The position numbers were made by a program, and so were the translations under genes. The notes below the pieces were generated by a model. It worked only from the letters and a program-made list of their open reading frames with translations. It ran no database searches and had not been told where the DNA came from. A stretch of 30,848 bases of DNA from a virus. Below, piece after piece: positions 146-22,327 of the stretch; within the stretch, counting starts at the first letter, position 1; every line of letters begins with the position of its first letter. The stretch lies in IMG/VR virus record IMGVR_UViG_3300030106_004702, positions 1-30,848 of that record; one strand, given 5' to 3'.

Positions 146-419
146 TGAGTTTCTCCATACTCACCACAACTTTTATTGCTCCGGCTAGCCGTTCAAAATC
201 ACCATTGAATTTCCTGCCGACAAACTTCTTCACATCTCGCAATTCTCGTCCCGTGTACGACTCTGCAAGTCGATCTCTTTCACTCCCTAGAGCAGCGAGG
301 ACGTGTTGAGACGATGGACGAAAACCATACTCACTCTCACAAAAATTCTTTACCTGTTTATTGGTTGCTTTGACACCCAAATTAAGGGATGCCTGTCTTA
401 TACTTTCACTCTTGTTCAC
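132..419 (-). CDS. Small unknown protein, possible helix-turn-helix
   Basis: 95 residues. I chose the GTG at 419 because AAGGAGG lies 8 bases upstream of it. A longer TTG-started frame to 443 would have no such site. The N-terminal half has the pattern SESIRQASLNLG, an N-K-Q-V-K-N-F segment, then YGFRPSSQHV. This resembles small winged-helix or HTH modules in which a short helical hairpin precedes a serine-rich turn and a recognition helix. The C-terminal half is basic and helical (GRELRDVKKFVGRKF). I do not recognise a family. It lies between the GT47-like gene (14-base overlap) and the GT10-like gene (14-base overlap), so it is co-translated with the glycan island. It could be a regulator or a simple accessory protein, and the DNA-binding idea is inference only. 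Confidence 0.6.
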   Translation of the reverse strand: MNKSESIRQASLNLGVKATNKQVKNFCESEYGFRPSSQHVLAALGSERDRLAESYTGRELRDVKKFVGRKFNGDFERLAGAIKVVVSMEKLNENN

Positions 420-2038: not shown

Positions 2039-2039
2039 A

Positions 2040-7899: not shown

Positions 7900-8326
7900 G
7901 ATCTCTCCTCGCTACTATAATGCTTTGCATGTTTTGGGTGTTAATTTGTTTCTGTTCTATCGTAAGACCTGTTGAGGTTAGAAGGTCTGATACCACTTCC
8001 GCGTTTAAAACTGAGTACATTGGTATGCCTCCATTAAATAGCAGGGTATTAAGATCTTGTATATCAATACCTGTCTTATTGTACTGGTGACAGACAAAGT
8101 CGATATCCTGCTGGTATACAATAATCTTACCATTCAATCTAAGTTTTGATGCTATCTTAGCCACCAAAGAGCCTATACTACTATAGTTGTAGGCGGTCAA
8201 AAAGTTGTCAACTATAATTTCCGTAGCCTCAGAATTTTCAACAAACATATCTATGTTATTTATATCTTGTATCCAAGTGTGAGATCCGGAATCTTCTGGT
8301 TGTATATGTGATAATAATATTTTCAT
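7892..8326 (-). CDS. Methyltransferase-like protein lacking the SAM loop
   Basis: 144 residues, ATG at 8326 with AGGT nine bases upstream. The order of elements matches the second half of a class I methyltransferase: ATEIIVDNFLTAYN (like the motif IV strand, where D-x-x-x-A is usual), a helix LVAKIASKLRLNG, GKIIVYQQD (motif VI region), and a C-terminal hairpin EVVSDLLTSTGLTIEQKQIN followed by NMQSIIVARR. The glycine-rich motif I that binds S-adenosylmethionine is absent. The first 30 residues (MKILLSHIQPED) do not supply one. It could be a truncated enzyme, an accessory subunit of a neighbouring methyltransferase, or a diverged enzyme with a different cofactor site. It is intact as an ORF, with no stop or frameshift visible. 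Confidence 0.55.
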   Translation of the reverse strand: MKILLSHIQPEDSGSHTWIQDINNIDMFVENSEATEIIVDNFLTAYNYSSIGSLVAKIASKLRLNGKIIVYQQDIDFVCHQYNKTGIDIQDLNTLLFNGGIPMYSVLNAEVVSDLLTSTGLTIEQKQINTQNMQSIIVARRDHV

Positions 8327-8330
8327 TTTT

Positions 8331-9344
8331 CTACCTGTAGTTTTGTATTACTGTTTTGAATAATTCATTCCAGCTATTAGTGAATCTTTTTAAGCTGAAG
8401 ATATCTTGTATTGTGGCCTTTGCACTTTCGCCAAGTTTTCTAGCCTCGTCGGGATGACCAAGGAGATACAAACAATGTTCTCTCAGTTCGTCAGCTGAGT
8501 TAGCGAGAAGACCGTTCTCTCCATGTGTTATAATCTCTGGTATCATACAGTTGTTAGTGCTAACTATCGCGCACCCACAAGCCATAGCTTCCATCAGTAC
8601 TGTAGGGACTGGAGAATGTATAGAAGTATTCAAAAATACTGAAGAACTTTTATAAGCATTCCGAAGCGCTTCTGTCGTTTCGGCAGGTTTTGAAAAACCC
8701 GGACTGTCCCCAAGAACTTTAACAGGGAGCTGAGAATCTCCACCACTCACTATTTCATTCCACAAATTCCAACCACAACACCAGTCTCTATTTGGCCAGT
8801 CATTGACTACGGAAAGACAAACATTATCCCTATCTCTTTCCATACCTTTATCCCAAAATTCTGTGTCTATGCCATGCTCAACAAATGTGCAGTTCTCAGA
8901 TTCATGCTTACCCCAAGCTCCCATATTATATCTAGATATGAAGCTGTCGTGATCCACTGGTATATTATTAAAGCTTTGAACCTGACTAGAAATATCAAAC
9001 CTGATATCAGGAAGCACATGAGTGTGTCGTATAATTGGTATGTTGTATATTGACTGTAGCTCTTTCGCTATAGCTATTCTCTCGCAGCTTGTATGCGACA
9101 ATATTAGATCAAAGTTAATATGGGTAGGCACTTCTACTATTTCATGATAGTTCTTAGGAACTATACCATAATCTCTATTCCAAGTTTTTCCATGTTTGAT
9201 GGAATAAAACTCGTGTCCTGTCATACATAGATTCTGCTCGTATCTCTCATGGGTGCAGAATGTTAAGATGTTAAGTTTATTCTCTGGAGGAAAACACCTT
9301 CTCAATATAGACCTGACCGATTCTTGTGTTGCATTACTAACCAT
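8331..9344 (-). CDS. GT4-family glycosyltransferase
   Basis: 337 residues, ATG at 9344 with AAAGGAG seven bases upstream. It has a GT-B fold with two Rossmann domains. The C-terminal domain starts near residue 178 (NVCLSVVNDWPNRDW). It carries the GT4 donor motif SIHSPVPTVLMEAMACGCAIVSTN near 240, where the two glutamates of the E-x7-E pattern are represented by a proline-substituted first position and E near 251. This first-glutamate loss is odd and may affect donor choice. PEIITHGENGLLA, typical of GT4, follows. The N-terminal domain binds the acceptor and contains FDLILSHTSCERIA. The next gene overlaps by 8 bases. The enzyme is probably cytoplasmic and retaining. Confidence 0.82.
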   Translation of the reverse strand: MVSNATQESVRSILRRCFPPENKLNILTFCTHERYEQNLCMTGHEFYSIKHGKTWNRDYGIVPKNYHEIVEVPTHINFDLILSHTSCERIAIAKELQSIYNIPIIRHTHVLPDIRFDISSQVQSFNNIPVDHDSFISRYNMGAWGKHESENCTFVEHGIDTEFWDKGMERDRDNVCLSVVNDWPNRDWCCGWNLWNEIVSGGDSQLPVKVLGDSPGFSKPAETTEALRNAYKSSSVFLNTSIHSPVPTVLMEAMACGCAIVSTNNCMIPEIITHGENGLLANSADELREHCLYLLGHPDEARKLGESAKATIQDIFSLKRFTNSWNELFKTVIQNYR

Positions 9345-10443
9345 CTAGTAGCTCCTTTAACTGACGCCCAATAATAGCTGTATCATACGATGATGCGCCA
9401 TGCTTAGCGTTTTCACATAAATCGTCGTAAGACTTTTTGTTTGTAGTATACTGTTGGTACACAAGTCTCATCTTAGCTGCAAGATCAGATACGTCTGGCT
9501 CCATCCATTTTGAATCTGCCGTATACAAAGTGTCCAGAGTGTCCGTCGCTTCATAGCAGGGCTGTAGTGTGGATTTTACAGGAAAACCTACGCAGAAGTC
9601 ATCCATTCCAGTTCCTTGTGTGTAGATGACAGGCATACCTAAAGCCATAGCTTCCATAGCTGGTATACACCATGCTTCTCCAAAGCTGGGCATTACAAAA
9701 CAATGAGCCTGTTTCATCAAAGAATGTAGATGCTGATGCTCCAAGTAACCGGCTATCACAACTTCCTCTTTATACTTTTTCCCTGTCTTCAAAGATCTCT
9801 TCACATGTTCAGAAAGATCTCTAAATAAAGATAGACTCTGATCACTGCCGTATCCTGATTTATGAACCTTGAATAGTATATTCACAGGTTCAGATGGATG
9901 AAATTCAGTATGAAAAGCTCTTAAGAGCGCTTCTATATTCTTCCTCTTGCCCATCTCTCCAACAAAGCAGAAGTTAAAAGTACCTTCTAGTTCTGGAGCG
10001 TTAGCTGTGGACTCAACATTTTCATACTTAGATATATCCAAAGAGTGGGGAGCTATCTTAATAGGAACTTTGACGCCGCTTCTTTGGGACGCTTTTACCA
10101 TTTGCTTGTTAGGAACCCAAGCCTCATCCATAAGATTTATGCTTTTTTGCCACATTGAGTCAGAAAAGGAATGTGTTTCGGTCACATAAAACCCTATGTT
10201 TTTGAATCGTCTGTCATAGACATATAAATGTGGTAGCGTGTGTTGAATGCAAACGTCTGAGCCTAAAGAGGTATCGGACTCAAGCTCTAATATCCTACTC
10301 GGGACTTCAGCATCACCCCCATTAAATTTAATGGCTCTCGGCACAACATTTACTCCAGCGGAATCTAATGCGAGTATATTATTTATACAAGCGTTAGCCC
10401 ATCCAGTTCCGTCTTTGTAATTTCCTATATATACAACTTTCAT
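9337..10443 (-). CDS. GT4-family glycosyltransferase
   Basis: 368 residues, ATG at 10443 with GAGGTC ahead, five bases after the upstream stop. The N-terminal acceptor domain starts VVYIGNYKDGTGWANACIN, with a glycine-rich turn. The C-terminal donor domain begins with FNFCFVGEMGKRKNIEALLR near residue 155 (the conserved R-K pair contacts the donor phosphate). It ends with PSFGEAWCIPAMEAMALGMP near 252-272, in which the E-x7-E pattern is intact. The late segment YDTAIIGRQLKELL is the usual GT4 C-terminal helix that folds back. It is one of three GT4 genes in tandem, probably adding successive sugars to the same chain. Confidence 0.88.
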   Translation of the reverse strand: MKVVYIGNYKDGTGWANACINNILALDSAGVNVVPRAIKFNGGDAEVPSRILELESDTSLGSDVCIQHTLPHLYVYDRRFKNIGFYVTETHSFSDSMWQKSINLMDEAWVPNKQMVKASQRSGVKVPIKIAPHSLDISKYENVESTANAPELEGTFNFCFVGEMGKRKNIEALLRAFHTEFHPSEPVNILFKVHKSGYGSDQSLSLFRDLSEHVKRSLKTGKKYKEEVVIAGYLEHQHLHSLMKQAHCFVMPSFGEAWCIPAMEAMALGMPVIYTQGTGMDDFCVGFPVKSTLQPCYEATDTLDTLYTADSKWMEPDVSDLAAKMRLVYQQYTTNKKSYDDLCENAKHGASSYDTAIIGRQLKELLDG

Positions 10444-10447
10444 TTTA

Positions 10448-12088
10448 TTAAGACCTCAAATTTAATTGTTGGGCTCTTACGCTTTCCCACTTGTTATGTA
10501 GGTTTCTAATTTGAGCAAGTGAATCATAAGCTTCTTTTACGGTGAACCTCGCCCATGTTTGGACACTGTTCTCTATATGAGATTCATTGAAGTAGTATCC
10601 CGGCATGGTACTATGGGCCGAGCATTTGTAAGTCAAATCTTTGACCAGTCTTTTCCATTGATAGTTACCTATTGCTTCAGGAGTGTGTAAAACATGCTCG
10701 AATAAAAAGTTAGCCTGACCGTGTGGTGATAGTCCATCGGGAACGCTAGCGGCGGGTTCTATAATTTTCGGTGGTGATAGCCAAGTTTCAGATATATCTC
10801 TAACTGGAGTGCTATGGAAGAAGTCAGACCATACCTTTGCGGTTTTATCCCAGCTATAATGATTGAGACAATTCTCCCTCATCTTCATTCCCATTGTCTG
10901 TAAGTCTTCCCTATTCTTGCTGTAAAGCTCAATTAACTTCACTAATGTAGCATCGTTGTCAGGAATCGCTCTATTGCAACCAGTCTCACACTCTCTAGTG
11001 AGAGCTAAAGGTTTTAAAGGAATACCTCCAACATTTTTGACTACAGATTCCATAGCAGAGTAGTCTATTGCCAGAAGAGGCAACCCAGATTGAACCGCTT
11101 CTAATTGAGGCATCCCAAAGCCTTCACTATTCGCGTATTGAATGTATACATCAAACAGGTTATATATTCTTGCTAGGTCTTTTTCTTCTATCTTATTGTT
11201 GACACCAACCAATTCCTTGGAAAAACTATTGCAAGCTTTACAGGCTTGTATCGAATCACTAAAGAATGTTGGCGTTATATCTCCACACTTTTTACATCTA
11301 TAGGTAAACAACACTCTATTAGTTAATCCGTACTCTTGCAGCAGGTCTGGAATTTCCCACCCAACATCTGGATAATATGTGTGGCAATATAGGAAGCATT
11401 GGGGATCTTTGGTGATGTCCAAAAACTGTCTAAAAACCTTGAACAGGTCTGGATAAAGCTTTCTTCTTTGATTTCGCATCACTGTACCTATAATAAAAGG
11501 TTCTCCACCGATGCCCATACTTTCTCTGTGAGCCTTCTTGTTGGCTACTGGAAAGAAGCTATCACTCGCGCAAGGGGAGGCGATGTCGATAAAGTTTAGA
11601 GAATCGCACTGATTAGTCAGTGTCTCTTTGCCAAACTCAGAATACGCAAATACAGAGTCGGCGGTAGAAAAAGTTTCTATCCACTGTTTGTTCTGTGGGT
11701 AGGCATCTACAGTAGGCATTAAAGCCCAATGGAAATGATTTCTAAAGCTAGATCTTTGCTGAAATTCTACCATCCACCAATCTCTAATATCCATAACGAA
11801 ATCAGGCAAGAAGTCTAGCAACACCTGATTGAATGTGTACTCTCCAAATTGATAACTGGGATATGACTTATAATCATCCCACTCGGCGGAACCTTTTATT
11901 GGTTGGTTTGCGTAGACTTTCCAAGGAGTGTTTGGATTTACTGATGGCTGATCGCAATAGCAGGCGAGTTCTGCCACTTCAAATGCTGGATCTTGATGTA
12001 GTCTGGAAAGCACCTCCTTTGTGTAGACTGAGTACCCTGTAGGCAGGTGTGATGCTTCAGTACAAAATAATATTTTCTTACGTCTCAT
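10448..12088 (-). CDS. Large GT4-family glycosyltransferase with embedded zinc ribbon
   Basis: 546 residues, ATG at 12088. The N-terminal domain starts KILFCTEASHLPTGYSVYTK. The donor domain starts near 199 (IIGTVMRNQRRKLYPDL) and carries SEGFGMPQLEAVQSGLPLLA at 321-340, with an intact E322-x7-E330 pattern. Between these two parts, at 265-286, lies a four-cysteine module CKKCGD...CKACNS (C265, C268, C283, C286) spaced like a zinc ribbon, inserted in a loop of the donor domain. Such an insertion is uncommon in GT4 enzymes. After the GT4 core there is an extra tail of about 110 residues (from about 437 to the end) with no recognised domain. The gene overlaps the sigma-like gene upstream by 11 bases. 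Donor and acceptor are unknown. Confidence 0.85.
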   Translation of the reverse strand: MRRKKILFCTEASHLPTGYSVYTKEVLSRLHQDPAFEVAELACYCDQPSVNPNTPWKVYANQPIKGSAEWDDYKSYPSYQFGEYTFNQVLLDFLPDFVMDIRDWWMVEFQQRSSFRNHFHWALMPTVDAYPQNKQWIETFSTADSVFAYSEFGKETLTNQCDSLNFIDIASPCASDSFFPVANKKAHRESMGIGGEPFIIGTVMRNQRRKLYPDLFKVFRQFLDITKDPQCFLYCHTYYPDVGWEIPDLLQEYGLTNRVLFTYRCKKCGDITPTFFSDSIQACKACNSFSKELVGVNNKIEEKDLARIYNLFDVYIQYANSEGFGMPQLEAVQSGLPLLAIDYSAMESVVKNVGGIPLKPLALTRECETGCNRAIPDNDATLVKLIELYSKNREDLQTMGMKMRENCLNHYSWDKTAKVWSDFFHSTPVRDISETWLSPPKIIEPAASVPDGLSPHGQANFLFEHVLHTPEAIGNYQWKRLVKDLTYKCSAHSTMPGYYFNESHIENSVQTWARFTVKEAYDSLAQIRNLHNKWESVRAQQLNLRS

Positions 12089-12563
12089 TGAGTTGAACTT
12101 TTCCTATCGCAGAATAAAACAAGTCGTAATACTCCCTTTTTGTAAGGTGTAGGGAGTCACATATATCTTTTCGTGTAGACCCTAGAGACTTATATAGCAG
12201 TAGCTTATGTTCTATTGGCAACAGTTTAGCGGACGCTTTTTCTATAATATCTCTTACAGTGGAGGCGTATTCTTTATCCTCTTGAATCTCTGCAAAGTCA
12301 GCCAAACCAAGCTTAACTTTCTCCGCCCAAAACTTTTCCTTAGATAAGAATCTTAAGATATAATTCTTAGCACTAGAAAATACATAATTTCTCAGGGGTC
12401 CAATTTCAGGATCATAGTTCCTGATAGCATTGAGGGCACCGAGAAATGATACTTGCATTAAATCCTCTAATGGGATTGTCTTTACTAGGTTATTAAACTT
12501 AGCTGACAAATATAGTATGATGTCATAATAGTCATCTAGTAGTTCTTTTTCAGTCTTTACCAT
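12078..12563 (-). CDS. Phage sigma-70-family factor, compact
   Basis: 161 residues from the ATG at 12563, which overlaps the ssb stop by 14 bases. A longer TTG frame reaches 12662 deep inside ssb and is unlikely. Residues about 10-75 match sigma region 2: a helix ending in LSAKFN, then IPLEDLMQVSFLGALNAIRN (close to the EDLxQxGxxGLxxAIxxF core-binding signature), YDPEIGPLRNYVFSSAKNYI and LRFLSKEK. The end of the protein (IEHKLLLYKSLGSTRKDICD then KREYYDLFYSAIGKVQ) fits region 4, an HTH that would read the -35 element. Region 3 is short. It probably directs host RNA polymerase to a class of phage promoters. Its place directly after ssb and before the glycan island suggests the switch from replication to later genes. 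The absence of anti-sigma or autoregulatory sites is from eye inspection only. Confidence 0.75.
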   Translation of the reverse strand: MVKTEKELLDDYYDIILYLSAKFNNLVKTIPLEDLMQVSFLGALNAIRNYDPEIGPLRNYVFSSAKNYILRFLSKEKFWAEKVKLGLADFAEIQEDKEYASTVRDIIEKASAKLLPIEHKLLLYKSLGSTRKDICDSLHLTKREYYDLFYSAIGKVQLNET

Positions 12564-12873
12564 TGCAGATCTTAAAACTCTTGACTCTGAAGTTAATTTT
12601 TTCTTTACTTTGTTCTTCCGGCGTGACCCACTTTTGTTGTCTGGCACAAGATTCGATTGCAACTAAATCTCCTTTTTTACAGACTTTTTTAAAGGCTGTA
12701 GCTCCGCTGTCCCAAGCCTCGAAATCTAGGAAATCAACGCGCTTCTTCTTTGTTCCGTCTTTATCTTTTCTATACTCTTCTATAGCCAAAGAGAATGTTA
12801 CTAATTGCGTAGAGCCAACGTCTTTGATCACCGGATCACTAACAAGCCTACCTATAAATGTGCATATATTCAT
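12550..12873 (-). CDS. ssb: Single-stranded DNA-binding protein
   Basis: 107 residues, ATG at 12873 with a perfect AGGAGGT three bases before it. It is an OB fold of the bacterial SSB type: MNICTFIGRLVSDPVIK, then VTFSLAIEEYRKDKDG, VDFLDFEAWDSGATAFKKVCKKGDLVAIES, and a last strand INFRVKSFKIC. It is shorter than host SSB (about 170-180 residues). The flexible acidic tail ending in DDDIPF, which recruits host repair proteins, is absent. The protein stops at NGKD right after the fold, so interactions made through that tail in bacteria are not expected here. It follows the C-terminal polymerase half and probably coats single strands at the phage fork. A candidate promoter lies just upstream. Confidence 0.9.
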   Translation of the reverse strand: MNICTFIGRLVSDPVIKDVGSTQLVTFSLAIEEYRKDKDGTKKKRVDFLDFEAWDSGATAFKKVCKKGDLVAIESCARQQKWVTPEEQSKEKINFRVKSFKICNGKD

Positions 12874-12895
12874 AATACCTCCTGTCTTTACAAAT

Positions 12896-12925
12896 ATATT
12901 ATATGCATATCTTAGACTTGAGACA
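12896..12925 (-). promoter_or_regulatory. Candidate promoter upstream of ssb
   Basis: On the minus strand the pattern is TGTC (12925-12922), 18 bases, then TATAATAT (12903-12896). The second box ends 22 bases before the ssb start codon, leaving room for a start point and the AGGAGGT site. The same TGTC-N18-TATAATAT spacing occurs in the gap before the FmdB gene (27693-27722). The upstream box does not look like TTGACA. It could be read by a phage or host sigma factor. The evidence is pattern only. Confidence 0.3.
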
Positions 12926-14471
12926 CTTTATTAATTATTAAACTGGTGTCTTTTTTCTTAGATACTTGACCAAAAACTATAACCGTGTTACCTTCGTATA
13001 ATATATTCTTAAATTCATCATAAGCATCAGGAAACATTATAGCAGAGTCCAGCATGGCTGAGGAGTCTTCTACAGATAAGAACGCCATAGTTTGTCCGGG
13101 ATTTTTACCATTTTTAGTAACATACTCACGTAAAGAGTTTATATGGATAACTAAGTTAACTGAGCCGGTTTTTCCATTTAGTATTTCTTTACATGTAGAG
13201 TTGACTACAGCGCTTTGTACTGCGTCTGTCTTGCAAAATGTTAAAGACGTTCCCATATATTTCTTTTCTGTGTCCGCTATCCACTCTGGATAGTCCGTTA
13301 GATCAAACGGTGGAGACTCAATTACATTTCTAATGTCAAAGACCTTCATAAGCCTATTAGAATTTATCTTCAAATTATTTATCATATTATCTATAGAATT
13401 AACGAGGCTATCATCGCTAATGTAATTGTCAGCAAGCCACTGTCTTTCTCTAGCCGATAGATCTTTATAGCTCTTGTACTCGTAAATTAGCTCATTGCGA
13501 TGCTTACGGTTTTTGCTACCATTGAAGGCTCCAACCTTTATCAAGGACTCCATACATGTCTTGTTTATCTTAAGGCCTAGATTCAACAGAATATCCATCC
13601 ACGTAAATTCTTGAAATTTTTTACCTAATTTTTCTTCTATCTCTGGTATAAGGTCTAATAGTTTTGTAGTTTCTGAGTTGCCAACACCTTTGACATTGGT
13701 TACTCCAAAATATACTTTACCATCTTTAGCAGTAAATGATGAATAGAAATGCCCCAAGCGAGGAGGCAATGTTTCTATATCATATAGTTTAGCGTCGGAT
13801 ACCAGTTCTTTTATCTCTGTATGGGCATCTGGCTTTCTCTCTGAGTGATTGAGATAGGATTCAAAGAACTTAAGCTTTCTATGTACCTTACAGTAGGCAC
13901 TCCTGTATGCGTTTACCGCATATGAAACTGCATGCGATTTGTTGAATGCATAACGGTTTGACTTTTCAATCCACCCGAATATTTCTTCTGAGGTTTCCTC
14001 ATTAATATTATTCGCTGTTGCCCCTTTGATAAACGAACCTTTTAACTTGTTCATCAAATCGGCCTTCTTCTTGCCAATAGCTTTGCGTAAGTCATCCGCC
14101 TCTTTGAGGTCGAAACCAGCGAGCTGTTGGGCGATCTTCATGGATTGCTCTTGGTACACAAGAACTCCAAAAGTTTCCTTCAGGATTGGTTCAAGACTTG
14201 GATGTAGATATTTAACCTCGTCAATGCCGGCCTTACGATCAACGTAATGTTGAGTCATAGACTTACCCTCTGTGAACGCTTTCAAACATCCGGGCCTAAT
14301 CAAAGATATTAACGCTGCTAATTCTTCAATGTTGCGAGGACGCACTCTCTTCGCCCACGATCTTCCAAGTTGTGACTCTAACTGAAAGACCCCCTTGGTC
14401 TGACCTTCACAAATTAAATCCCAAACGCTAGAGTCGTCATAGTTATCAATATTAAACGTAGAATTCGCCAT
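12912..14471 (-). CDS. dnaE: DNA polymerase III alpha, C-terminal half (split)
   Basis: 519 residues from the ATG at 14471, chosen because GAGAAAG lies 9 bases upstream. A TTG six codons earlier would overlap that site. It begins exactly where the family's fingers region starts: GVFQLES at 27-33, the RPG motif at 59-61 (RPGCL), GVLVYQEQ at 102-109, GFDLKEADDLRKAIGKK at 119-135 and FNKSHAVSYA at 176-185, the segment that contacts the incoming nucleotide and template. A helix-hairpin-helix part ends near SLIKVGAFNGSKNRKHR, and the last 90 residues form an OB fold (AFLSVEDSSAMLDSAIMFP). None of the catalytic aspartates are here: they are in the N-terminal half at 15807-17378. The long tau-binding tail of E. 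coli DnaE is absent. The two halves presumably associate to form one enzyme. It overlaps the exonuclease gene by 20 bases. Confidence 0.92.
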   Translation of the reverse strand: MANSTFNIDNYDDSSVWDLICEGQTKGVFQLESQLGRSWAKRVRPRNIEELAALISLIRPGCLKAFTEGKSMTQHYVDRKAGIDEVKYLHPSLEPILKETFGVLVYQEQSMKIAQQLAGFDLKEADDLRKAIGKKKADLMNKLKGSFIKGATANNINEETSEEIFGWIEKSNRYAFNKSHAVSYAVNAYRSAYCKVHRKLKFFESYLNHSERKPDAHTEIKELVSDAKLYDIETLPPRLGHFYSSFTAKDGKVYFGVTNVKGVGNSETTKLLDLIPEIEEKLGKKFQEFTWMDILLNLGLKINKTCMESLIKVGAFNGSKNRKHRNELIYEYKSYKDLSARERQWLADNYISDDSLVNSIDNMINNLKINSNRLMKVFDIRNVIESPPFDLTDYPEWIADTEKKYMGTSLTFCKTDAVQSAVVNSTCKEILNGKTGSVNLVIHINSLREYVTKNGKNPGQTMAFLSVEDSSAMLDSAIMFPDAYDEFKNILYEGNTVIVFGQVSKKKDTSLIINKVSQV

Positions 14472-15141
14472 TCGCAAACGCTTTCTCAAATTTGGTTTTT
14501 TCGGAAATGTTTCTCTGAAACTTTAGAAACTTAATCAATATATTAGCCGTGTCTTTAACGTCCTGCAACGCGTCGTGAGCGTTCTCCTTGCTTTCTTCAG
14601 GGAAACCCATATAGTCTCTTAGAAAGTCCATACTGAGACTCTTGAAGTCCTTATTGTTCTCAGTCCAAGAGAAAACCATATCCATCAAATCTAACTTAAA
14701 GATCGGATTAAACACAGTCTGGCGACCCCTCGAATCTGTTGTACCATACATATCACACATTCTCTGTACGATTGGTAAGTCAAATCCGATAATGTTATAA
14801 CCTGCGGCGATTGGAGCAGTGTAAGATGTTCCCCTAAAGTTAAACTTATTGCAGAAGTCCTCAAACTTATTCCACACAGTTTTTGGTAGAGGGGCTTTTG
14901 CTAGATCCTTGCGATTCTTCCCTGTGATTTCAAGAGCTTCATCCTCAATAGGATCAAATCCAGCTTCAATAGCTTTCTTATCGTCCAATATAGGCCTAAT
15001 CTCACTATTGAACATTCCTCCCGGTTGAAGGGTAAGCTTACGCCCATGAAGGGCTATTGCTGCAATCTGTGTGGGCTGTGTCTTATGTGGATTTCTAGAT
15101 CCTGTTTCAAAGTCAAATACAATTATATCTCTATAGTTCAT
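14452..15141 (-). CDS. DnaQ-like DEDDh 3'-5' exonuclease
   Basis: 229 residues. The ATG at 15141 is chosen because GGAGG lies nine bases ahead. The three Exo motifs are complete: D10-F-E12-T in IIVFDFETGS (Exo I), D121 in GYNIIGFDLPIVQR (Exo II), and H189/D194 in ENAHDALQDV (Exo III, so the DEDDh subtype). The protein is about the length of the epsilon proofreading subunit. It lies between the two halves of the polymerase and directly before the C-terminal half, so proofreading for the split polymerase is the likely role. The polymerase PHP domain looks degraded and would not proofread. No clamp-binding motif is obvious in the last 30 residues. Confidence 0.9.
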   Translation of the reverse strand: MNYRDIIVFDFETGSRNPHKTQPTQIAAIALHGRKLTLQPGGMFNSEIRPILDDKKAIEAGFDPIEDEALEITGKNRKDLAKAPLPKTVWNKFEDFCNKFNFRGTSYTAPIAAGYNIIGFDLPIVQRMCDMYGTTDSRGRQTVFNPIFKLDLMDMVFSWTENNKDFKSLSMDFLRDYMGFPEESKENAHDALQDVKDTANILIKFLKFQRNISEKTKFEKAFANGEFYV

Positions 15142-15589
15142 TACCAACCACCTCCGCTAATAGATTAGATTTTATCTTAATTAATTGGTCAAAATTAATG
15201 TCTAATTCTTCCAAATAATTAGTCACCAGCCCTGCAACAATTTTACTTTGTGACTGTCCTGTGAAAGAACTCACCATCTGCATTTTGTCTCTAAGGTCTA
15301 CTGGAAATACATAACATACATTAGTTGTAGGATTGATAAAAGTTGTATCTGACTCCATAAGCTCAGTTATAGATTGAACATCCGCATCAGACAACTTAAA
15401 CCACTCGCCTTCAGTATTTTTACTAGAATACATTTTATGCAATGCAGCTTCACTTACAAGTGCCTCATCACAATCTGCCAATAGCTCAATATCAGGTCTT
15501 GCGGTTTTAAATTTTTTCAACCTCTCATGGGGAGTTTTCGCCTTACCGATCTTGTACTCATCACCTGATTTCATTAAATATGTTCTCAT
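15131..15589 (-). CDS. GIY-YIG (T5orf172/MUG113-type) domain fused to ribbon-helix-helix
   Basis: 152 residues, ATG at 15589 in an ATGA overlap, with AAAGGTG seven bases upstream. Residues 3-65 form a GIY-YIG fold of the T5orf172/MUG113 type: T3-Y4-L5 for GIY, Y12-K13-I14-G15 for YIG, R23 as the catalytic arginine, E47 in the SEAALHKMY helix as the metal-binding glutamate, and GEWFKL at 61-66. Residues 92-127 look like a ribbon-helix-helix DNA-binding domain: a strand CYVFPVD, then a helix LRDKMQMVSS, the turn FTGQS, and a second helix SKIVAGLVTNYLEEL. The combination suggests a sequence-specific nuclease. It sits between the two halves of the polymerase gene, as homing endonucleases do in other split phage genes. 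It could also be a phage DNA-processing or host-DNA-degrading enzyme. Confidence 0.75.
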   Translation of the reverse strand: MRTYLMKSGDEYKIGKAKTPHERLKKFKTARPDIELLADCDEALVSEAALHKMYSSKNTEGEWFKLSDADVQSITELMESDTTFINPTTNVCYVFPVDLRDKMQMVSSFTGQSQSKIVAGLVTNYLEELDINFDQLIKIKSNLLAEVVGNEL

Positions 15590-15804
15590 CTTACAGCACC
15601 TTTCAATTCAAAAAACTTATCAACTGCATCGTCTATATTCTTGTAAATCTTACTAAATTTTAATTTCTTAGAGTGTACTTGATAGGTACGAGACATCCCA
15701 TTTCTCGATGGTATGTAATTGCCTAAATTGCATAGGCTAATGTCTTTGTACTCGATAGCACATCCCGAAAATAGGACTGATTTATAATCCGATTTGATAT
15801 CCAT
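15586..15804 (-). CDS. Small unknown protein between the polymerase halves
   Basis: 72 residues. The ATG at 15804 follows the stop of the N-terminal polymerase half by two bases, and AAGGAG five bases ahead of it lies inside that gene's last codons. The sequence has a strand-rich first half with two cysteines (SGCAIEYKDISLCNLGNYIP) and a basic second half (KKLKFSKIYKNIDDAVDKFFELKG), which could be one small alpha/beta domain. I do not recognise a family. The stop is shared with the next start as ATGA, so it is co-translated with the GIY-YIG gene. Its role may be tied to that gene or to the polymerase. Confidence 0.6.
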   Translation of the reverse strand: MDIKSDYKSVLFSGCAIEYKDISLCNLGNYIPSRNGMSRTYQVHSKKLKFSKIYKNIDDAVDKFFELKGAVR

Positions 15805-15806
15805 TA

Positions 15807-17378
15807 TTACTCCTTAATCTCCATAATTTTGCTTAGTAGGTCAATGCCAAGTATATCAAACTTTACATGACCCTGATCTTCAAGATCTCCCATTTCAAAT
15901 CCAGCTATTAGGTTTTTACTTCTATCCTGAACCATAGGGCACACCTCTCTTAACTTTTTAGATGATATGATAACTCCTGCAGCATGTTTGCCTTGGGACT
16001 TTATTGTGCCCTCTATATCAATAGCCTGCTGAAAGACAGATGCTAAAGGGCCTATCAAATCATCTTCACTGTTGACCTTGCACCATCTATCTAAAATTTC
16101 TGGCTGATATAGTAGAGTCCACTTAATTAAAGACTTCTCTCCACTCTGCTCCATGAGGTCAGATACATCTGCTTCATTTGGTATGTTCTTAGTTATATCG
16201 TTCATCTCCCCAAAAGAAACATTACTGTTAATACGCATAATTTCTTTGAGAGCTGCCTTACCTTGTAGTTTGTTAAAGGTCAACATCTGGGAAACATTAT
16301 CTTCGCCATACTTTGACTTAATATAGCCTATAACTTCATCTCTTTTCTCCGCTGGAACATCTAGGTCAATATCGGGAAGTGATACATGACCATCGGTATT
16401 TCTACCAGCGTTGTAAAATCTTTCAAAAATTAAATCATATTGTATTGGGTCAATTTCTGTTATGCCGATCAAATAAGATATAAGACAGCCGGCAGCAGAG
16501 CCCCTTCCGGGCCCCGGAAGCCAACCTCTTGATCTGACGTGGTTGACAATATCTTGAACAATCAAAAAATAACCAGATAGATTAGCTTCAAATATAACAT
16601 CCATTTCCGTCTTAATTCTATCGAGATATTCTTGCTTTTTACTCTCGTCATTAACCTTACCTGTAACCGCAAGCAACTCTCTCCAACCATCCCTACATAA
16701 CTGTTTAAGGTAGTCATCTTCAGTGTAGTCGTCTGGACAATCAAACTTAGGCAGCATAGGCTGTCCTAGTATTTCATATTCCTCGCACTCATCAGCGATA
16801 TCTGCAGACCAGCTAATTTCTTCTTGAGTATACAGTTTTTTCACTTGCTCTGGCGAAGGAAGGTAAAAATCGTCTGAACTAAAAAACTTCTTTAACTTCT
16901 TATTATCGTCTAACTTGTTAGCAACCTTAGACATGTTGGTTTTTATGCCTGAGCAAAGGAGTATGCGGTGTAGTTCTGCTTCACATGACTCAACATAGTA
17001 GACTGGCTTTTGTTTGATGCTATCTGTAGATATAAGATTTTCATCTGAAATAGAATCAATAAGCTTATAAACGACCTCATCGGAATAGCTGTTCTTTTTA
17101 GATACTAAATCTATTAGAGAATACCAACCCTCTTTGTTCTTCGCTAATAAAGTTTTCGTCTTGCCATTTTCAAACTCAAATGTGCATCCTATTATTGGCT
17201 TTACGTCTTGCTTTCGGCACTCTTTAAAAAATGCTACAGCTCCAGATATAGTATTTATATCAGTGATGGCGCAAGCATTATAACCAAACTCTTTACATTT
17301 GGATATTAGCTTGTCGGGCTTTGAAAAACCTCTTTGCAGGCTAAAGTGAGTCTTATTGTTTAGTGGAACCCAGTTCAT
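15807..17378 (-). CDS. dnaE: DNA polymerase III alpha, N-terminal half (split)
   Basis: 523 residues, ATG at 17378 with GAGGT upstream. Residues 1-200 are a PHP domain. Its metal ligands look degraded (KTHFS at 9-13 in place of HxHxS, and TDIN at 39-42 in place of TDHG), so it is probably structural. The palm follows: GPGRGSAAG at 289-297, the catalytic D338 and D340 in PDIDLD, HAAGVI at 465-470, and the third aspartate D508 in KFDILG. The reading frame ends 15 residues later at a TAA, at a natural loop before the fingers. The missing fingers continue in the ORF at 12912-14471. There is no intein-type sequence at the end (the last residues are KIMEIKE). The two ORFs sum to about 1040 residues, near the length of a complete DnaE. 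The start overlaps the upstream nuclease gene by 26 bases. Confidence 0.93.
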   Translation of the reverse strand: MNWVPLNNKTHFSLQRGFSKPDKLISKCKEFGYNACAITDINTISGAVAFFKECRKQDVKPIIGCTFEFENGKTKTLLAKNKEGWYSLIDLVSKKNSYSDEVVYKLIDSISDENLISTDSIKQKPVYYVESCEAELHRILLCSGIKTNMSKVANKLDDNKKLKKFFSSDDFYLPSPEQVKKLYTQEEISWSADIADECEEYEILGQPMLPKFDCPDDYTEDDYLKQLCRDGWRELLAVTGKVNDESKKQEYLDRIKTEMDVIFEANLSGYFLIVQDIVNHVRSRGWLPGPGRGSAAGCLISYLIGITEIDPIQYDLIFERFYNAGRNTDGHVSLPDIDLDVPAEKRDEVIGYIKSKYGEDNVSQMLTFNKLQGKAALKEIMRINSNVSFGEMNDITKNIPNEADVSDLMEQSGEKSLIKWTLLYQPEILDRWCKVNSEDDLIGPLASVFQQAIDIEGTIKSQGKHAAGVIISSKKLREVCPMVQDRSKNLIAGFEMGDLEDQGHVKFDILGIDLLSKIMEIKE

Positions 17379-17868
17379 TATTTACCTCAAATTCATTCAA
17401 CTCTGAAATCGCAACATTATGGCAGTCAGCTCTAACAACAAAACCATTTGAAGGATCTATCTGGCCTTTAGTAAGCTTTCTAGCCTTCTCGAAATAATTA
17501 TCGTGAGTCAACCAACCTAGTACCCACGCCCTACCCCATCTTTTGTTTTTGTTTTCTATTCTAACGAAAACATACCTGTCACATTTTTGCCTAGTGTTAA
17601 AGTTTGCAACTGAGCAATCGTAGTAGGGCTTAGGGGGCGACGTGCATCTCTTTGTTTTAACATCATATTTGATTCCGTCTTTAGAAACCAAATCATAATC
17701 ATATGTGTTATTAATTGTACCATCAATAACAACATTTGCAACCTCTTCACCTAAAAAACCAGCAATATTTCCATCGCCTTTCATGATGGAGTTTTTAATA
17801 ACTCCCATCTCTCTAGACTTTGCCCATGCGCGTTTCTTCATATCTTCTGTAATTTTTACTTCAATCAT
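17353..17868 (-). CDS. PD-(D/E)XK-type nuclease
   Basis: 171 residues, ATG at 17868 in a TAATG junction with the Cas4-like gene. The core is GFLGEEVANVVIDG (E41/E42), DYDLV (D57 or D59) and YDVKTKR (D69-x-K71), which gives the E...D...D-x-K layout of the restriction-endonuclease fold. Later, CDRYVFVRI gives a core strand, and AWVLGWLTHDNYFEKA resembles the end of the fold. Similar compact proteins are common in phages as structure-specific or restriction-like nucleases. The lack of a recognisable DNA-reading domain argues against a true restriction enzyme, and a recombination or fork-processing nuclease fits the neighbours better. Confidence 0.7.
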   Translation of the reverse strand: MIEVKITEDMKKRAWAKSREMGVIKNSIMKGDGNIAGFLGEEVANVVIDGTINNTYDYDLVSKDGIKYDVKTKRCTSPPKPYYDCSVANFNTRQKCDRYVFVRIENKNKRWGRAWVLGWLTHDNYFEKARKLTKGQIDPSNGFVVRADCHNVAISELNEFEVNNELGSTKQ

Positions 17869-18881
17869 TATCCGGGAGCCTCATAATATCCAACATCAAA
17901 ACCTTCTCTAGTACAATTCTGTATAGTGTCTAACATTCCAAACTGTTCTAAATGATTGCTGACATGCCTGCACATACTCTCATTAGTTCCGGGCCAGTCT
18001 TTCTTGCAAAAGTCGCAAAGTTTTTGACACTTCCAATGAGACTGGGTTCTAGAAAGCATTCTAGGTCGTGTTGTCTTCTTGATTTCCTCAAACCTATCCT
18101 TAAGCATGCCTAAAAATTTACGTCTGTCACTTTCTTCAAAGCAGATACTGAAAGGACCTCCATCTCTAATAAAGTATATCGACATAATGGCATCACTATA
18201 TTCAGGAAAAAGGTGAGAAATCGCGTAATGATACAACATTAATTGCGGATCTTTACAGAGCTTCTCGTAAGTTTTTTCCTCGCCTGTCGCCCAGTTTAAC
18301 CTACGGCCAGTCTTCCAATCTATAACTTCAATCACATTATCGTCTACCTCTGTCACGAGGTCGATTGTACCCTTAATCGCAAGCCTGCCTTCTACTCTAG
18401 TACCGTCTGGCATATCGTATTCATATTTAGCCCAGTCCTCTTCGATGGGTATATCAAACTGTGGTTCAGCCGCTACAATATTTCTCTTTCTGGGATCAAA
18501 GTTTCCGTCATCATAGGTCAACGCTTCCCAAGTTAGTTTATCACAAAACTTATAATCGGCATTAGTGTAATGATGATTGCAGTTAGATGTATAGTGGTCG
18601 TAGCTACGCTTAAGGATTTCGTTTACAAATTTCTTTGTTCCGAGTCTACGTTTAGTAAACTCGACCTCTCCGATAGCGTCATCCTCAAGCAATAGCTCGG
18701 CCTTGTCTTGATGTAGCTTCTTGCAGCCAGCGAGAACTTCCATAACTTTATGTACAATAGTTCCTAACTGAGCCTTTTTACCAGATACACTTTGATGACC
18801 TAGAACATAAGTCATAAAGTATTGCATCTGACAATACTCGAAATTGTTGTAGCTAGAGCTACGTATATATGTGACTAACAT
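17868..18881 (-). CDS. Cas4/RecB-like PD-(D/E)XK nuclease with probable Fe-S cluster
   Basis: 337 residues, ATG at 18881 directly after the dNMP kinase stop, with AAGGCG upstream. The Cas4/AddB layout is complete: S-x-x-N-F-E-Y-C at 10-17 (C17), LGTIVHKVMEV with H44, GTIDLV with D174, EVIDWKTGR with D188 and K190, and the DPQLMLYHYA helix with Q213. A cysteine group C285, C289, C292, C304 near the end, with C17, could hold a 4Fe-4S cluster as in Cas4 and AddB. These are single-strand exonucleases used for recombination or end processing. There is no CRISPR array and no other cas gene in the window, so a role in phage replication or recombination with the RecA-like protein is more likely. Confidence 0.85.
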   Translation of the reverse strand: MLVTYIRSSSYNNFEYCQMQYFMTYVLGHQSVSGKKAQLGTIVHKVMEVLAGCKKLHQDKAELLLEDDAIGEVEFTKRRLGTKKFVNEILKRSYDHYTSNCNHHYTNADYKFCDKLTWEALTYDDGNFDPRKRNIVAAEPQFDIPIEEDWAKYEYDMPDGTRVEGRLAIKGTIDLVTEVDDNVIEVIDWKTGRRLNWATGEEKTYEKLCKDPQLMLYHYAISHLFPEYSDAIMSIYFIRDGGPFSICFEESDRRKFLGMLKDRFEEIKKTTRPRMLSRTQSHWKCQKLCDFCKKDWPGTNESMCRHVSNHLEQFGMLDTIQNCTREGFDVGYYEAPG

Positions 18882-19712
18882 TTATTCGCCTTCTTGTTTG
18901 ATAGCAGTAATACCGCCTACCAGTCCCTCAAAAGATGATTCTTCTGAGTCGATAGGTTCTACTGGCGCTTCTTCTTGTGCTACTTCTCCAAGCCAGCCCC
19001 ATTCATCCATAAGTTCCACAACCATTTTATTGGTTTCTAACACGCTTAAGTCTTGATTATCTATAACAGAGTCGTAGCCTTCAAATCCATCTAGAGCTAG
19101 TTCGCTATTATGGTTGTCTTTTAAGTTGCTTCTAGTGAGGTGAATAACCTTTCCTCCAGCTCTCTGAACGGCCTCTACTTCATTTGGAAATCTGCAGTCA
19201 GAAATCACTGCAATTAAAGGCTCTTCATTAGATATGTTTTTTATAGTTCTTTCTGTCCATATATCAGAGTAGATGCCCCTACAAATATCAGTGCCAAAGA
19301 CCTGTAAGAATTCTCTAGCTGTCATTCGACCCGTTTCATCACCGTCATAGCCGGGAATATCTTCCCATCTAATCCATGTCAGACTGTTTTTTTCAGCATT
19401 AGAGCCATAACACTGCTCCTTACTTAAACCAAAAAGTCCTGTAGCTATCTCTTTTAAGGGGGAAGCAAACGCATAATGCTTGATGAACGGCCACATATTA
19501 TCGACAGCCCAAAATGCGAATTCAATATCCTCTCTAGTGACATCTAAAACTCCTTGATTTGAGCCGTCAGTAGAAACTATCAACTGGCCTTTGTCTGATA
19601 TAGCAAAGTCATCGAGCAGTCCATGAGACTTCATTTGATATCCGTGCAGGAAATTACAGCAAGTGTTTTTGCCTGACTGTTTTTTACCCGCAAATGCTAA
19701 AATTCTAGTCAT
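18882..19712 (-). CDS. Deoxynucleoside monophosphate kinase (T4 gp1-like)
   Basis: 276 residues, ATG at 19712 in a TAATG junction, with AAGGGGT upstream. A P-loop GKKQSGKNT lies at 9-17. The gp1-type signature follows: AREFLQVFGTDICRGIYSDIWTER near 133-156, then ISDCRFPNEVEAVQRAGG near 169-187 and VIHLTRS. These enzymes turn dNMPs to dNDPs and feed phage DNA synthesis. An acidic tail (VAQEEAPVEPIDSEESSFEG) extends beyond the family core and may be a flexible arm. With the dUTPase at 22776-23195 it makes a small nucleotide-supply set beside the replication genes. Confidence 0.85.
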   Translation of the reverse strand: MTRILAFAGKKQSGKNTCCNFLHGYQMKSHGLLDDFAISDKGQLIVSTDGSNQGVLDVTREDIEFAFWAVDNMWPFIKHYAFASPLKEIATGLFGLSKEQCYGSNAEKNSLTWIRWEDIPGYDGDETGRMTAREFLQVFGTDICRGIYSDIWTERTIKNISNEEPLIAVISDCRFPNEVEAVQRAGGKVIHLTRSNLKDNHNSELALDGFEGYDSVIDNQDLSVLETNKMVVELMDEWGWLGEVAQEEAPVEPIDSEESSFEGLVGGITAIKQEGE

Positions 19713-20749
19713 TAAAGTACCCCTTCAAGTTCGTTTATAATTTGTTCTTTGATTTGTTCTATGCTCATTTCACCAATATCTTTCTCTGATATGTCTGGAC
19801 GGTAGTAATTAAACCTCCTACCTCCCTTTTTAATGATTTGTTCAGCGGCTCTTTCACCAGCCTCATCGGTGTCTGTTAAAATTACTAAATTTAAAGCTCC
19901 ACTCTGTTCGAGCAAGACTAACTGTTCGTCACTTAGACTTGCGCCGAATATACCGACGCAGTTTTTAACACCCGCTTCGTGCATTCTCCATACATCACCC
20001 TGACCTTCTACTAGCACGGCAGTTCCTGTATTTAGTATCTCTTCTTTGGCCACGTTCATGCCGTATAAGTATGCGCTTTTTCTAAACCCTTTACTATGCA
20101 GCCATTTTGGTTTCATCCACTCGGAAGAGGCGCGGCCAATACATCCAACATAATTATAGTCTTCATCGTAGATTGGGACAACAATTCTTCCAGACATTGG
20201 CTTATTTTTATTATTGCACATTCCAATGTCAAAGTTTACCAGAGTTTCTTCTTGATAACCTCTATTGATATAGTATTTAGAAGGTATGGCAATGCTTTCA
20301 ACTATTTCATTTCTAGAAATCTTAGGAGCTTCTCTAAAAGGACTTCGTTCAAAAGTTTCAAGTATCTTGATATCATTATTAGTTTCAACGGCAGTGTTTG
20401 GTATATCTTCTGCCTTGAGGTCAAGAAATTTTAAGCAGAAGGAGTAAGCCGTATAGATATCTATCTCTTTACTGAGCTTGTTTGCTAAAGCCCCTCTAAC
20501 AAAACCAAAGAGACTCTTAGAGTAATCTTCTTCACAGTGCTGCGTCCAGCACGCCCAATTACCTTTAGAGGTATTGCCATCAGTAAAGATACTACACCCC
20601 ATCGGATTATCACCACCATGAATAGGGCAAGCGAAGGATAGTCTGTTAGGATGCTCTTCGTACTCTATATCAAAATACGACATTATGTCGTGTAGTCTGG
20701 GAAATAATTTATTCGATATCTGAAATATCTGTGTATTGTTCAACGCCAT
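19712..20749 (-). CDS. dnaG: DnaG-type primase (CHC2 zinc finger plus Toprim)
   Basis: 345 residues from the ATG at 20749. A longer frame to 20830 lies deeper in the helicase gene and has no better signal, but the 41-base overlap here is also long, so the start is uncertain. The zinc finger is FACPIHGGDN (C41, H44) with NWACWTQHCEE (C67, C72). The Toprim part has VLVEGQGDVWRMHEAG (catalytic E) and LVILTDTDEAGERAA (D-x-D). The protein is shorter than bacterial DnaG and lacks a clear C-terminal helicase-binding domain. It makes RNA primers for the phage fork, probably with the helicase encoded just upstream. Confidence 0.88.
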   Translation of the reverse strand: MALNNTQIFQISNKLFPRLHDIMSYFDIEYEEHPNRLSFACPIHGGDNPMGCSIFTDGNTSKGNWACWTQHCEEDYSKSLFGFVRGALANKLSKEIDIYTAYSFCLKFLDLKAEDIPNTAVETNNDIKILETFERSPFREAPKISRNEIVESIAIPSKYYINRGYQEETLVNFDIGMCNNKNKPMSGRIVVPIYDEDYNYVGCIGRASSEWMKPKWLHSKGFRKSAYLYGMNVAKEEILNTGTAVLVEGQGDVWRMHEAGVKNCVGIFGASLSDEQLVLLEQSGALNLVILTDTDEAGERAAEQIIKKGGRRFNYYRPDISEKDIGEMSIEQIKEQIINELEGVL

Positions 20750-22193
20750 TTTCTGTGTCAAAGCCTTTATTCTTAGTATCGCTGGATTTGCGGAGCTCGT
20801 TTCTCGTTCGACCTTCCGAAATCTTTCCAAACTTGCCGATCATATCCATGTTGATATAGTCTCCATCATCAAGACCAGACCCGTGTCTGGCGACAATCGG
20901 CACCAATTTTCTGTTACCGTTTTCTTCAAGATCATCCGCCATCTCTTCATCTGATTTCATCTTAAAAATACTAAAGCTAGTACATAGCCATATGAGTCTA
21001 TCAGATCCAGAAACAACGTCTGTTGATTCTTTTGTTATACCGTCTCGATTAAGCTGCACAAAGCTCAGGCATGGTACATCATACTTGACAGTAAAGTTAT
21101 GCAGTTGTGTTATTTGAAAGCCTAAGACTTGAAACTCCTGCATTGAATTAGATATACTGTCGGAGTTCATAAGTTTAAGGTAATCATAAATTATGAGACA
21201 GTCTTTTGTTCTTCCATTTTCGTCAAAGCCTACCTCTTGATATATCCACTTACGCATAATGCTTAGTATGTTTTCAAAAGGTTGACCCGCAATGCTTACA
21301 TAATGATAAGGTATATCCTTTAGATGTTCGGCTCCCTTTTCTACCTTTTCAACATCTAGCTCGTTATTTGCAAACTTACCAGCAGCAAGCCTGTTTATTT
21401 CGACATTGCTTAAATTTGCCAGCATTCTATTCAGGTGATCTTCCTTAGACATCTCAGTATCTAGCATTAGTACTGGGATATTTAAATTCTTCGCCACATG
21501 TAGAGCTACAGCATCTCCAAACATAGACTTACCTACTTTAGGTCTAGCAGCAATTAGGTCAACACATTTTCGTCTTAAACCTCCACCTATAGCCTCGTCA
21601 TAGACTGGAAACCCAGTGCTTATGCCAATAGACATATCTTTGTTTTCTTTGAGGTATTGGATATATTCATCAACCTCATCGCCAATAATCTCAGGCTTGT
21701 TACTTGCTCTCTGATATATTTTAGAAGTGACCTCTAAAACAGGCGATTCAATTAGAGAGATGATGTCATTTATATCTTCATCTCCAGTGACTTTGTCTAT
21801 CTCAGAAGAACAAACCTTCAAAGTCTTTTTGACATCACGAGCGACTTTAAGTTTTGAGATTTTAGCTGCATGGATTTGTACGTTTTCCTTATTTATAGGA
21901 AAGTTAAATAACGATCTTATAAAACCTATCTCTTCTGGACTACTAATATTTTCATAGAAGCCTAGTTGATTGGCTGAAGATAGCAGGGAAGAAAGCTCCA
22001 CGCTCTGAGAGTCTTTCATAGACTTCTCAATACACTTGAAGATGATTTGGTTCATCTCGTTTGTAAAATAGCTAGAGTCAACAAAATCAATATCAAGATA
22101 GCAGTCTAATCCATACTGACATATTCCAGCCAGCACAGCTCGCTCAGCCGCTAAGTCTTCTAGCTTCCGTTTATTTTCTTTATTTCGTACCAT
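20709..22193 (-). CDS. dnaB: DnaB-type replicative helicase
   Basis: 494 residues from the ATG at 22193. A 12-residue longer frame is in the data but lies deep in the small upstream gene. The N-terminal helical domain has AERAVLAGICQYG near 16-28. The RecA-like domain starts with ISTGFPVYDEAIGGGLRRKC, then Walker A ARPKVGKS near 216-223, LMLDTEMSKEDHLNRML (H1a), the Walker B strand DCLIIYDYLKLM and the LSFVQLNRDGITK motif (H3). GSDRLIWLCT and VARHGSGLDDG near the end fit motif H4 and the arginine-finger region. The last 40 residues are charged and probably disordered. This protein unwinds DNA 5'-3' at the phage fork and would load the primase. No loader gene is apparent next to it. Confidence 0.9.
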   Translation of the reverse strand: MVRNKENKRKLEDLAAERAVLAGICQYGLDCYLDIDFVDSSYFTNEMNQIIFKCIEKSMKDSQSVELSSLLSSANQLGFYENISSPEEIGFIRSLFNFPINKENVQIHAAKISKLKVARDVKKTLKVCSSEIDKVTGDEDINDIISLIESPVLEVTSKIYQRASNKPEIIGDEVDEYIQYLKENKDMSIGISTGFPVYDEAIGGGLRRKCVDLIAARPKVGKSMFGDAVALHVAKNLNIPVLMLDTEMSKEDHLNRMLANLSNVEINRLAAGKFANNELDVEKVEKGAEHLKDIPYHYVSIAGQPFENILSIMRKWIYQEVGFDENGRTKDCLIIYDYLKLMNSDSISNSMQEFQVLGFQITQLHNFTVKYDVPCLSFVQLNRDGITKESTDVVSGSDRLIWLCTSFSIFKMKSDEEMADDLEENGNRKLVPIVARHGSGLDDGDYINMDMIGKFGKISEGRTRNELRKSSDTKNKGFDTENGVEQYTDISDIE

Positions 22194-22327
22194 AATAATC
22201 CAATATTGGCCATAGCATAAGAAATCCACATCAATGCGTGTGGATAATCTTTTTGTTTAATACATGAGCCGCATACGATAATATACATCAATGCGGAAAC
22301 AGCTATCGCTGTCATACCAAAAGTCAT
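22160..22327 (-). CDS. Very small membrane protein, two TM segments
   Basis: 55 residues. The ATG at 22327 follows the TAA of the gene before it directly, with AGAGG seven bases ahead, and the stop (TAG) is at 22160. Residues about 5-22 (TAIAVSALMYIIVCGSC) and about 31-46 (ALMWISYAMANIGLLW) form two likely membrane helices, joined by a short charged loop (IKQKDYPH). The ending is basic (EIKKINGS). The YAMANIGLLW pattern recurs in many small phage membrane proteins of unknown role. It overlaps the helicase start by 34 bases and is translated in another frame. Confidence 0.65.
   Translation of the reverse strand: MTFGMTAIAVSALMYIIVCGSCIKQKDYPHALMWISYAMANIGLLWYEIKKINGS

What the first reader, a model, noticed from the sequence alone, without database searches (positions are those of the whole stretch)
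12912..17378. DNA polymerase III alpha is split into two genes, with three genes between
The N-half (15807-17378) ends 15 residues after the third catalytic aspartate (KFDILG). The C-half (12912-14471) starts a short distance before GVFQLES. Nothing essential appears lost, as the two add up to about 1040 residues. There is no intein sequence at the break and the C-half has its own ATG and Shine-Dalgarno, so the halves are made separately and probably assemble in trans. Split replicases are known for some T4-like phage polymerases interrupted by homing endonucleases and for cyanobacterial DnaE with a split intein, but this break point and partner set look different.
Basis: partly seen in the sequence, partly recalled or inferred. 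Interest (0 to 1): 0.82.

Follow-up and report, generated by a model that had tools for sequence, protein, structure and literature searches.

The report
Phage replicase made in two pieces
A large, uncultured group of aquatic phages makes its only recognisable DNA-copying enzyme, a relative of the bacterial chromosome replicase, as two separate proteins with the proofreading enzyme's gene lodged between them; the arrangement is old and kept by selection, and suggests that this enzyme can be built from two chains without being glued together.

Summary
Window 17378-15807 and 14471-12912 (minus strand) encode PHP+palm+thumb (523 aa) and fingers+HhH+OB (519 aa) of one DnaE-type Pol III alpha. The break lies in the palm-fingers linker (E. 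coli about 570-581). Nothing is lost: the linker pieces sum to 35 residues, as in a naturally fused relative. No intein or intron is seen. The order N-half, small ORF, DEDDh exonuclease, C-half, SSB recurs in 212 IMG/VR loci (some contigs counted twice), down to about 44% identity. Both halves are under strong purifying selection. In 18 relatives of 87-244 kb it is the only A-, B- or C-family polymerase found. So it is a fixed two-chain replicase with its proofreader co-encoded, not an artefact. Of the three genes between, the exonuclease and the small-protein slot are constant; the GIY-YIG-like gene is a recent insert. Six contigs carry a fused gene, probably a re-fusion, which supports one enzyme from two chains. 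Precedents exist: a minimal split version in jumbo phages (PMC7824862) and phage P1201, broken in the same linker. I call it a new variant of a known kind. Assembly in trans and polymerase activity are inferred, not shown.

The parts
15807..17378 (-). DnaE N-half, 523 aa: PHP, palm, thumb; catalytic motifs GPGRGSAAG, PDIDLD, KFDILG
   Evidence: Pfam PF02811 + PF07733 complete; aligns to E. coli alpha up to residue 563; AF2 model pLDDT 87.6, pTM 0.83, Foldseek hits Pol III alpha E about 1e-33
12912..14471 (-). DnaE C-half, 519 aa: fingers, HhH, OB
   Evidence: PF17657, PF14579, weak PF01336; aligns to E. coli alpha from residue 591
14452..15141 (-). DEDDh 3'-5' exonuclease, probable proofreading subunit; always between the halves in split members
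   Evidence: PF00929, phrog_192 'DNA polymerase exonuclease subunit'; D10, E12, D121, H189, D194 invariant in 29 sequences; dN/dS at most about 0.03
15586..15804 (-). small protein, 72 aa, function unknown, alpha-beta4-alpha; conserved in the window's lineage
   Evidence: family in 99 loci, replaced in 84 loci by an unrelated roughly 60-aa protein in the same slot; AF2 pLDDT 83.7; no PDB fold match, best E 0.37
15131..15589 (-). MUG113/T5orf172 (GIY-YIG-like) protein, optional insertion
   Evidence: PF13455/PF10544; of the loci, found only in the window and L036
12550..12873 (-). SSB, next gene after the C-half
   Evidence: PF00436; same place in relatives
17353..17868 (-). u171, unknown, overlaps the N-half start; shared with the fused group at 62% identity
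   Evidence: no family; present in A and F lineages, absent in B
17868..18881 (-). PD-(D/E)XK exonuclease, conserved upstream neighbour
   Evidence: PF12705
19712..22229 (-). DnaG-like primase (19712-20830) and DnaB-like helicase (20709-22229), rest of the replication module
   Evidence: phrog_47, phrog_19

Best explanation
The window belongs to a large clade of uncultured phages whose replicase is a two-chain DnaE. The N-chain carries PHP, palm and thumb with all three catalytic aspartates; the C-chain carries fingers, HhH and OB. The chains are translated separately from one gene cluster and assemble non-covalently at the palm-fingers boundary into one C-family polymerase. The exonuclease encoded between them acts as its epsilon-like proofreader. 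Shown: gene structure, completeness, recurrence, purifying selection, absence of intein or intron at the break, absence of another family A/B/C polymerase in the large relatives. Inferred: assembly in trans, polymerase activity, exonuclease partnership, role of the small protein.
For: Domains complete across the pair. Linker between KFDIL and GxTKGxFQ is 13+22=35 aa in the window and 35 aa in the natural fusion L166. Across 178 N-halves the stretch from KFD to the end is only 18-32 aa, and C-half heads are at most 69 aa in 187, too short for intein parts. No Rfam intron. Split with exonuclease between in 212 loci. dN/dS: N 0.016-0.053, C 0.014-0.051, exonuclease at most 0.034. 18 contigs of 87-244 kb: one palm unit and one fingers unit each, no PolA or PolB. 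Six contigs fuse the halves, a Rosetta-stone argument that they form one enzyme. P1201 is independently broken in the same linker while its relative Stickynote has one gene. The N-half folds alone in prediction and matches Pol III alpha.
Against: No biochemical or proteomic data; no two-chain structure could be predicted here. No isolate with this arrangement in the phage collection. Completeness of the large contigs is not stated, so another polymerase could lie outside them. No bacterial-type clamp C-domain was found, and I see no obvious clamp-binding motif in the C-half, so processivity is unexplained.
Confidence: 0.86

Rival explanations
1. The halves are joined after all, by trans-splicing of a split intein, by an intron, or by frameshift or bypass between exonuclease and C-half.
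For: Inteins occur in this DnaE family at other sites: split inteins at GRG|SAAG in L163 and L203, a continuous one at RPG|C in L111. The exonuclease and C-half overlap by 20 nt in another frame.
Against: No intein-sized tails or heads at the break in about 180 sequences; no Rfam intron; two or more intact, conserved ORFs lie between; the exonuclease-C overlap is not conserved, ranging from -17 to several hundred nt.
Confidence: 0.04
2. The N and C products are not one polymerase: the gene is decaying, or one half has a separate job while another enzyme replicates the genome.
For: The PHP metal residues are degraded in the window's lineage.
Against: Strong purifying selection on both halves, catalytic residues kept, no other A/B/C polymerase in 18 large relatives, fusion of the halves in one lineage.
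Confidence: 0.06
3. About origin only: the fused group F is the primitive state and the gene was split later by moving the exonuclease into it, rather than F being a re-fusion.
For: More distant DnaEs are fused except where broken by inserts; the AU test does not reject F outside the split clade (p 0.075); F has a long branch.
Against: F falls inside the split clade in the N+C trees (SH-aLRT 99; 24 log-likelihood units); F shares u171 at 62% and three glycosyltransferases in the same order with the window's lineage, and u171 is absent from lineage B.
Confidence: 0.25

Closest known systems
Split minimal Pol III alpha of group 2.2 jumbo phages (Iyer et al. 2021, PMC7824862)
   Same: C-family catalytic subunit encoded as two standalone proteins in phages, proposed to reconstitute in trans
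   Different: Theirs is a minimal catalytic core, in distantly located genes, divided between NTP-binding and Mg/template-binding parts, beside a family B replicase; here all DnaE domains are present, the genes are neighbours with the exonuclease between, the break is after the third Asp, and no family A or B polymerase was found
Corynebacterium phage P1201 gp59/gp58 (NC_009816)
   Same: DnaE in two genes broken in the same palm-fingers linker, no intein, second gene with its own SD and GTG
   Different: Genes overlap, nothing lies between; a relative (Stickynote, 64% identical there) has one gene, so it looks like a single recent event or a sequence error; about 31% identical to the window
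Cyanobacterial split DnaE with split intein
   Same: DnaE encoded by two genes
   Different: Joined by trans-splicing; here no intein pieces at the break
Phage DnaE genes interrupted by inteins or homing elements (phage G gp329-331, Cellulophaga phiST, Bacillus phage Jayan)
   Same: Interrupted DnaE reading frame in phages
   Different: Breaks at GRG|SAAG or near PD|xD inside the palm, in phage G with intein or homing endonuclease at the break
Split DNA polymerase of OM43 phages (MEP401 type, PMC10580990)
   Same: Marine phage DNA polymerase gene in two pieces with a small ORF between
   Different: Another phage lineage and, to my understanding, another polymerase family; the authors discuss introns and homing endonucleases

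Membership tests
DnaE-type C-family DNA polymerase (Pol III alpha) | palm with three catalytic Asp (PDxDxD and KFD) | tested here: met
   PDIDLD and KFDILG in the N-half, the aspartates invariant in 27 sequences; PF07733 complete
DnaE-type C-family DNA polymerase (Pol III alpha) | fingers, HhH and C-terminal OB in this order | tested here: met
   PF17657, PF14579, PF01336 in the C-half; OB is below its cut-off
DnaE-type C-family DNA polymerase (Pol III alpha) | one polypeptide chain | tested here: not met
   Two genes in 212 loci; it is filed as a two-chain variant, functional unity being inferred
DnaE-type C-family DNA polymerase (Pol III alpha) | beta-clamp binding motif after HhH | tested here: inconclusive
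   No conserved Gln motif seen in the A2 alignment by eye; not tested with a profile
Proofreading exonuclease (DEDDh, epsilon-like) | D-E-D-D-H catalytic residues | tested here: met
   Invariant in 29 sequences
Proofreading exonuclease (DEDDh, epsilon-like) | physical association with the polymerase | not testable with these tools
   Only gene position and phrog_192 membership
Split-intein DnaE (cyanobacterial kind) | intein N- and C-parts at the break | tested here: not met
   Tail and head lengths
Intron-interrupted polymerase | group I/II intron at the break | tested here: not met
   No Rfam match up to E 1 in 12500-17900
Split minimal Pol III alpha of jumbo phages (PMC7824862) | minimal core, distant genes, companion family B polymerase | tested here: not met
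   Full domain set, neighbouring genes, no PF00136 in 18 relatives

The most novel reading that the evidence does not exclude
The split replicase is a true multi-subunit enzyme in which the small protein encoded between palm chain and exonuclease is a dedicated subunit that bridges the chains or the exonuclease. Two unrelated small proteins fill that slot in the two main lineages, so replicase assembly would be a controlled step with an exchangeable bridging part.
Probability: 0.2. Interest if true: 0.8.

Novelty: new variant of a known kind. Interest (0 to 1): 0.6.

Why it matters
It indicates that the main bacterial-type replicase tolerates, and over long times keeps, a break exactly between palm and fingers. 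That makes a structural question (how independent are the catalytic and the fingers/HhH/OB parts of Pol III alpha?) directly testable with natural two-chain enzymes and a natural fusion of the same family as control. It also shows that gene-by-gene annotation hides the replicase of a large group of aquatic phages, and adds a replicase to the list of enzymes that phages carry in pieces.

Tried and rejected
Sequencing or assembly error: rejected by recurrence in many contigs. Intein at the break: rejected. Intron: no Rfam match. Exonuclease-C fusion by frameshift: overlap not conserved, and the A-run near the overlap is not in the frame needed for a classical -1 slip. Duplicate KFD remnant in C-half heads (suggested by alignments starting at query 47): it is a different, CGC-containing N-terminal extension. 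Fold of the small protein: no PDB match. Bacteroides phages DAC16 and kin, hit by the exonuclease: the neighbours are terminase and ligase, not DnaE. Host from cellular genomes: among the hits only two binned contigs carry the split phage form, L241 (Lokiarchaeota bin) and L242 (Flavobacteriales bin), probably phage contigs in bins, so the host stays unknown. Jayan break as Rfam intron: no match. Literature searches for a split Pol III alpha in phages gave only PMC7824862.

Full report
What is there. The window is an IMG/VR virus record of 30,848 bases. On the minus strand, 17378-15807 encodes 523 residues with a PHP domain and the complete DNA_pol3_alpha palm/thumb domain, and 14471-12912 encodes 519 residues with fingers, HhH and a weak OB match. 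By alignment to E. coli Pol III alpha the N-half runs to residue 563 and a few beyond, and the C-half picks up at 591 with about ten residues before, so the break is near E. coli 570-581, in the linker between the last palm strand and the fingers (domain names after Pfam and established structures). All three catalytic aspartates are in the N-half. The structure predicted for the N-half alone is confident (pLDDT 87.6, pTM 0.83), ends with the KFDILG strand and one helix, and its best solved matches are Pol III alpha chains at about 1e-33.

Nothing is missing. From KFDIL to GxTKGxFQ there are 13 residues on the N-chain and 22 on the C-chain in the window, sum 35; in the naturally fused relative L166 there are 35, in other fused phage DnaEs 41-44.

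No splicing. Among 178 split N-halves the stretch from KFD to the stop is 18-32 residues, and the C-half heads before GxTKGxFQ are at most 69 codons counted from the previous stop. There is no room for intein parts. No Rfam family matches the region. The intervening genes are intact.

What lies between. In 212 loci where both halves were found (some contigs counted twice), the DEDDh exonuclease lies between them. Its catalytic residues are invariant and it is the most conserved of the set in most pairs (dN/dS at most 0.034). Between N-half and exonuclease there is a small protein: the window's 72-aa family in 99 loci, and an unrelated roughly 60-aa family with a CC motif in 84 loci. The 72-aa family is predicted as alpha-beta4-alpha without a match in the PDB. 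The GIY-YIG-like gene of the window is, among the loci, found only in the window and L036. Other members carry other cargo in this stretch: HNH-type nucleases, sugar genes, a sulfotransferase-like gene (the assignments are my reading of the sequences).

Sole replicase. In 18 relatives on contigs of 87-244 kb there is one palm unit and one fingers unit each and no family A or B polymerase. These contigs are not stated to be complete, so this is strong but not absolute. Both halves are under strong purifying selection. In the window's lineage the PHP metal ligands are lost while basal members keep them, which fits proofreading by the separate exonuclease; that link is inference.

Fused relatives. 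Six contigs (loci L166=L198, L169=L201, L199, L200, L202, L203) carry one fused DnaE (1139 aa in L166; interrupted by an intein in L203) with the exonuclease directly upstream. The neighbourhood where visible is the same: PD-(D/E)XK, u171, exonuclease, DnaE, SSB, glycosyltransferases. In trees of N+C they fall inside the split clade beside the window's lineage with SH-aLRT 99. Holding all split members together costs 24 log-likelihood units, p-AU 0.075, so this is favoured, not proven. Shared u171 at 62% identity, absent from the other main lineage, agrees; the exonuclease tree also puts F on the window's side but is poorly resolved. The best reading is an old single split and one later re-fusion with the exonuclease displaced. 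Fusion in one lineage of two chains that are separate in others supports that they form one enzyme.

Independent break in the same linker. Corynebacterium phage P1201 has gp59 (652 aa) and gp58 (476 aa), overlapping genes broken between its KLDCLG and TGIFQFEG motifs, with GGAGG and a GTG start at the break; Stickynote, about 64% identical in this part, has one gene of 1097 codons. Either this is a second natural split in the same linker or an error in that record.

Relation to the literature. Iyer et al. (PMC7824862) report a split minimal Pol III alpha in group 2.2 jumbo phages, in distant genes and beside a family B polymerase. PHROG families also show breaks elsewhere: two N-type families end at about window residue 327-329 and one C-type family starts at 334, that is just before PDIDLD. 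No paper found describes the arrangement of the window. The library holds open-licence papers only, so an earlier description cannot be excluded.

Verdict. Observation confirmed; interpretation supported with the refinements above. It is a new variant of a known kind: a full-domain, two-chain DnaE with the proofreader gene inside the split, fixed in a large aquatic phage clade. Trans assembly is the most likely mechanism (0.86) and is untested.

Noticed in passing
L163:885-4018 and L203:1427-5981: The N-half (or fused DnaE) is broken at the catalytic motif GPGRG|SAAG by a split intein: N-intein with a stop, a separate ORF that looks like an endonuclease, then a C-intein ending in VHN|SAAG. Phage G carries a continuous intein at the same site.
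   Followed up: partly
L111:5893-8289: The C-half carries a continuous intein of about 250 aa with an HNH-like part at RPG|C, ending HN|C.
   Followed up: partly
L322:41400-45400 (Cellulophaga phage phiST): DnaE is broken into two frames just before TLPDIDTD; the RefSeq table shows no CDS there. Could be a small split intein or an insertion.
   Followed up: no
window 15586-15804 and L030:7869-8054: Two unrelated small proteins occupy the same slot between N-half and exonuclease in the two main lineages.
   Followed up: partly
window 15807-17378, PHP part: PHP metal-binding residues and about 100 residues of the PHP region are lost in the window's lineage but kept in basal members.
   Followed up: partly
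L241 and L242: Split phage-type DnaE on contigs binned into a Lokiarchaeota and a Flavobacteriales genome; probably phage contigs, possible host hint.
   Followed up: no
window 406-10443: A run of glycosyltransferase genes and an NAD-dependent epimerase gene downstream of the replication module, partly shared with relatives.
   Followed up: no
window 12078-12873: The sigma-70 region 2 ORF overlaps the SSB ORF by about 110 nt in another frame; its true start is unclear.
   Followed up: no
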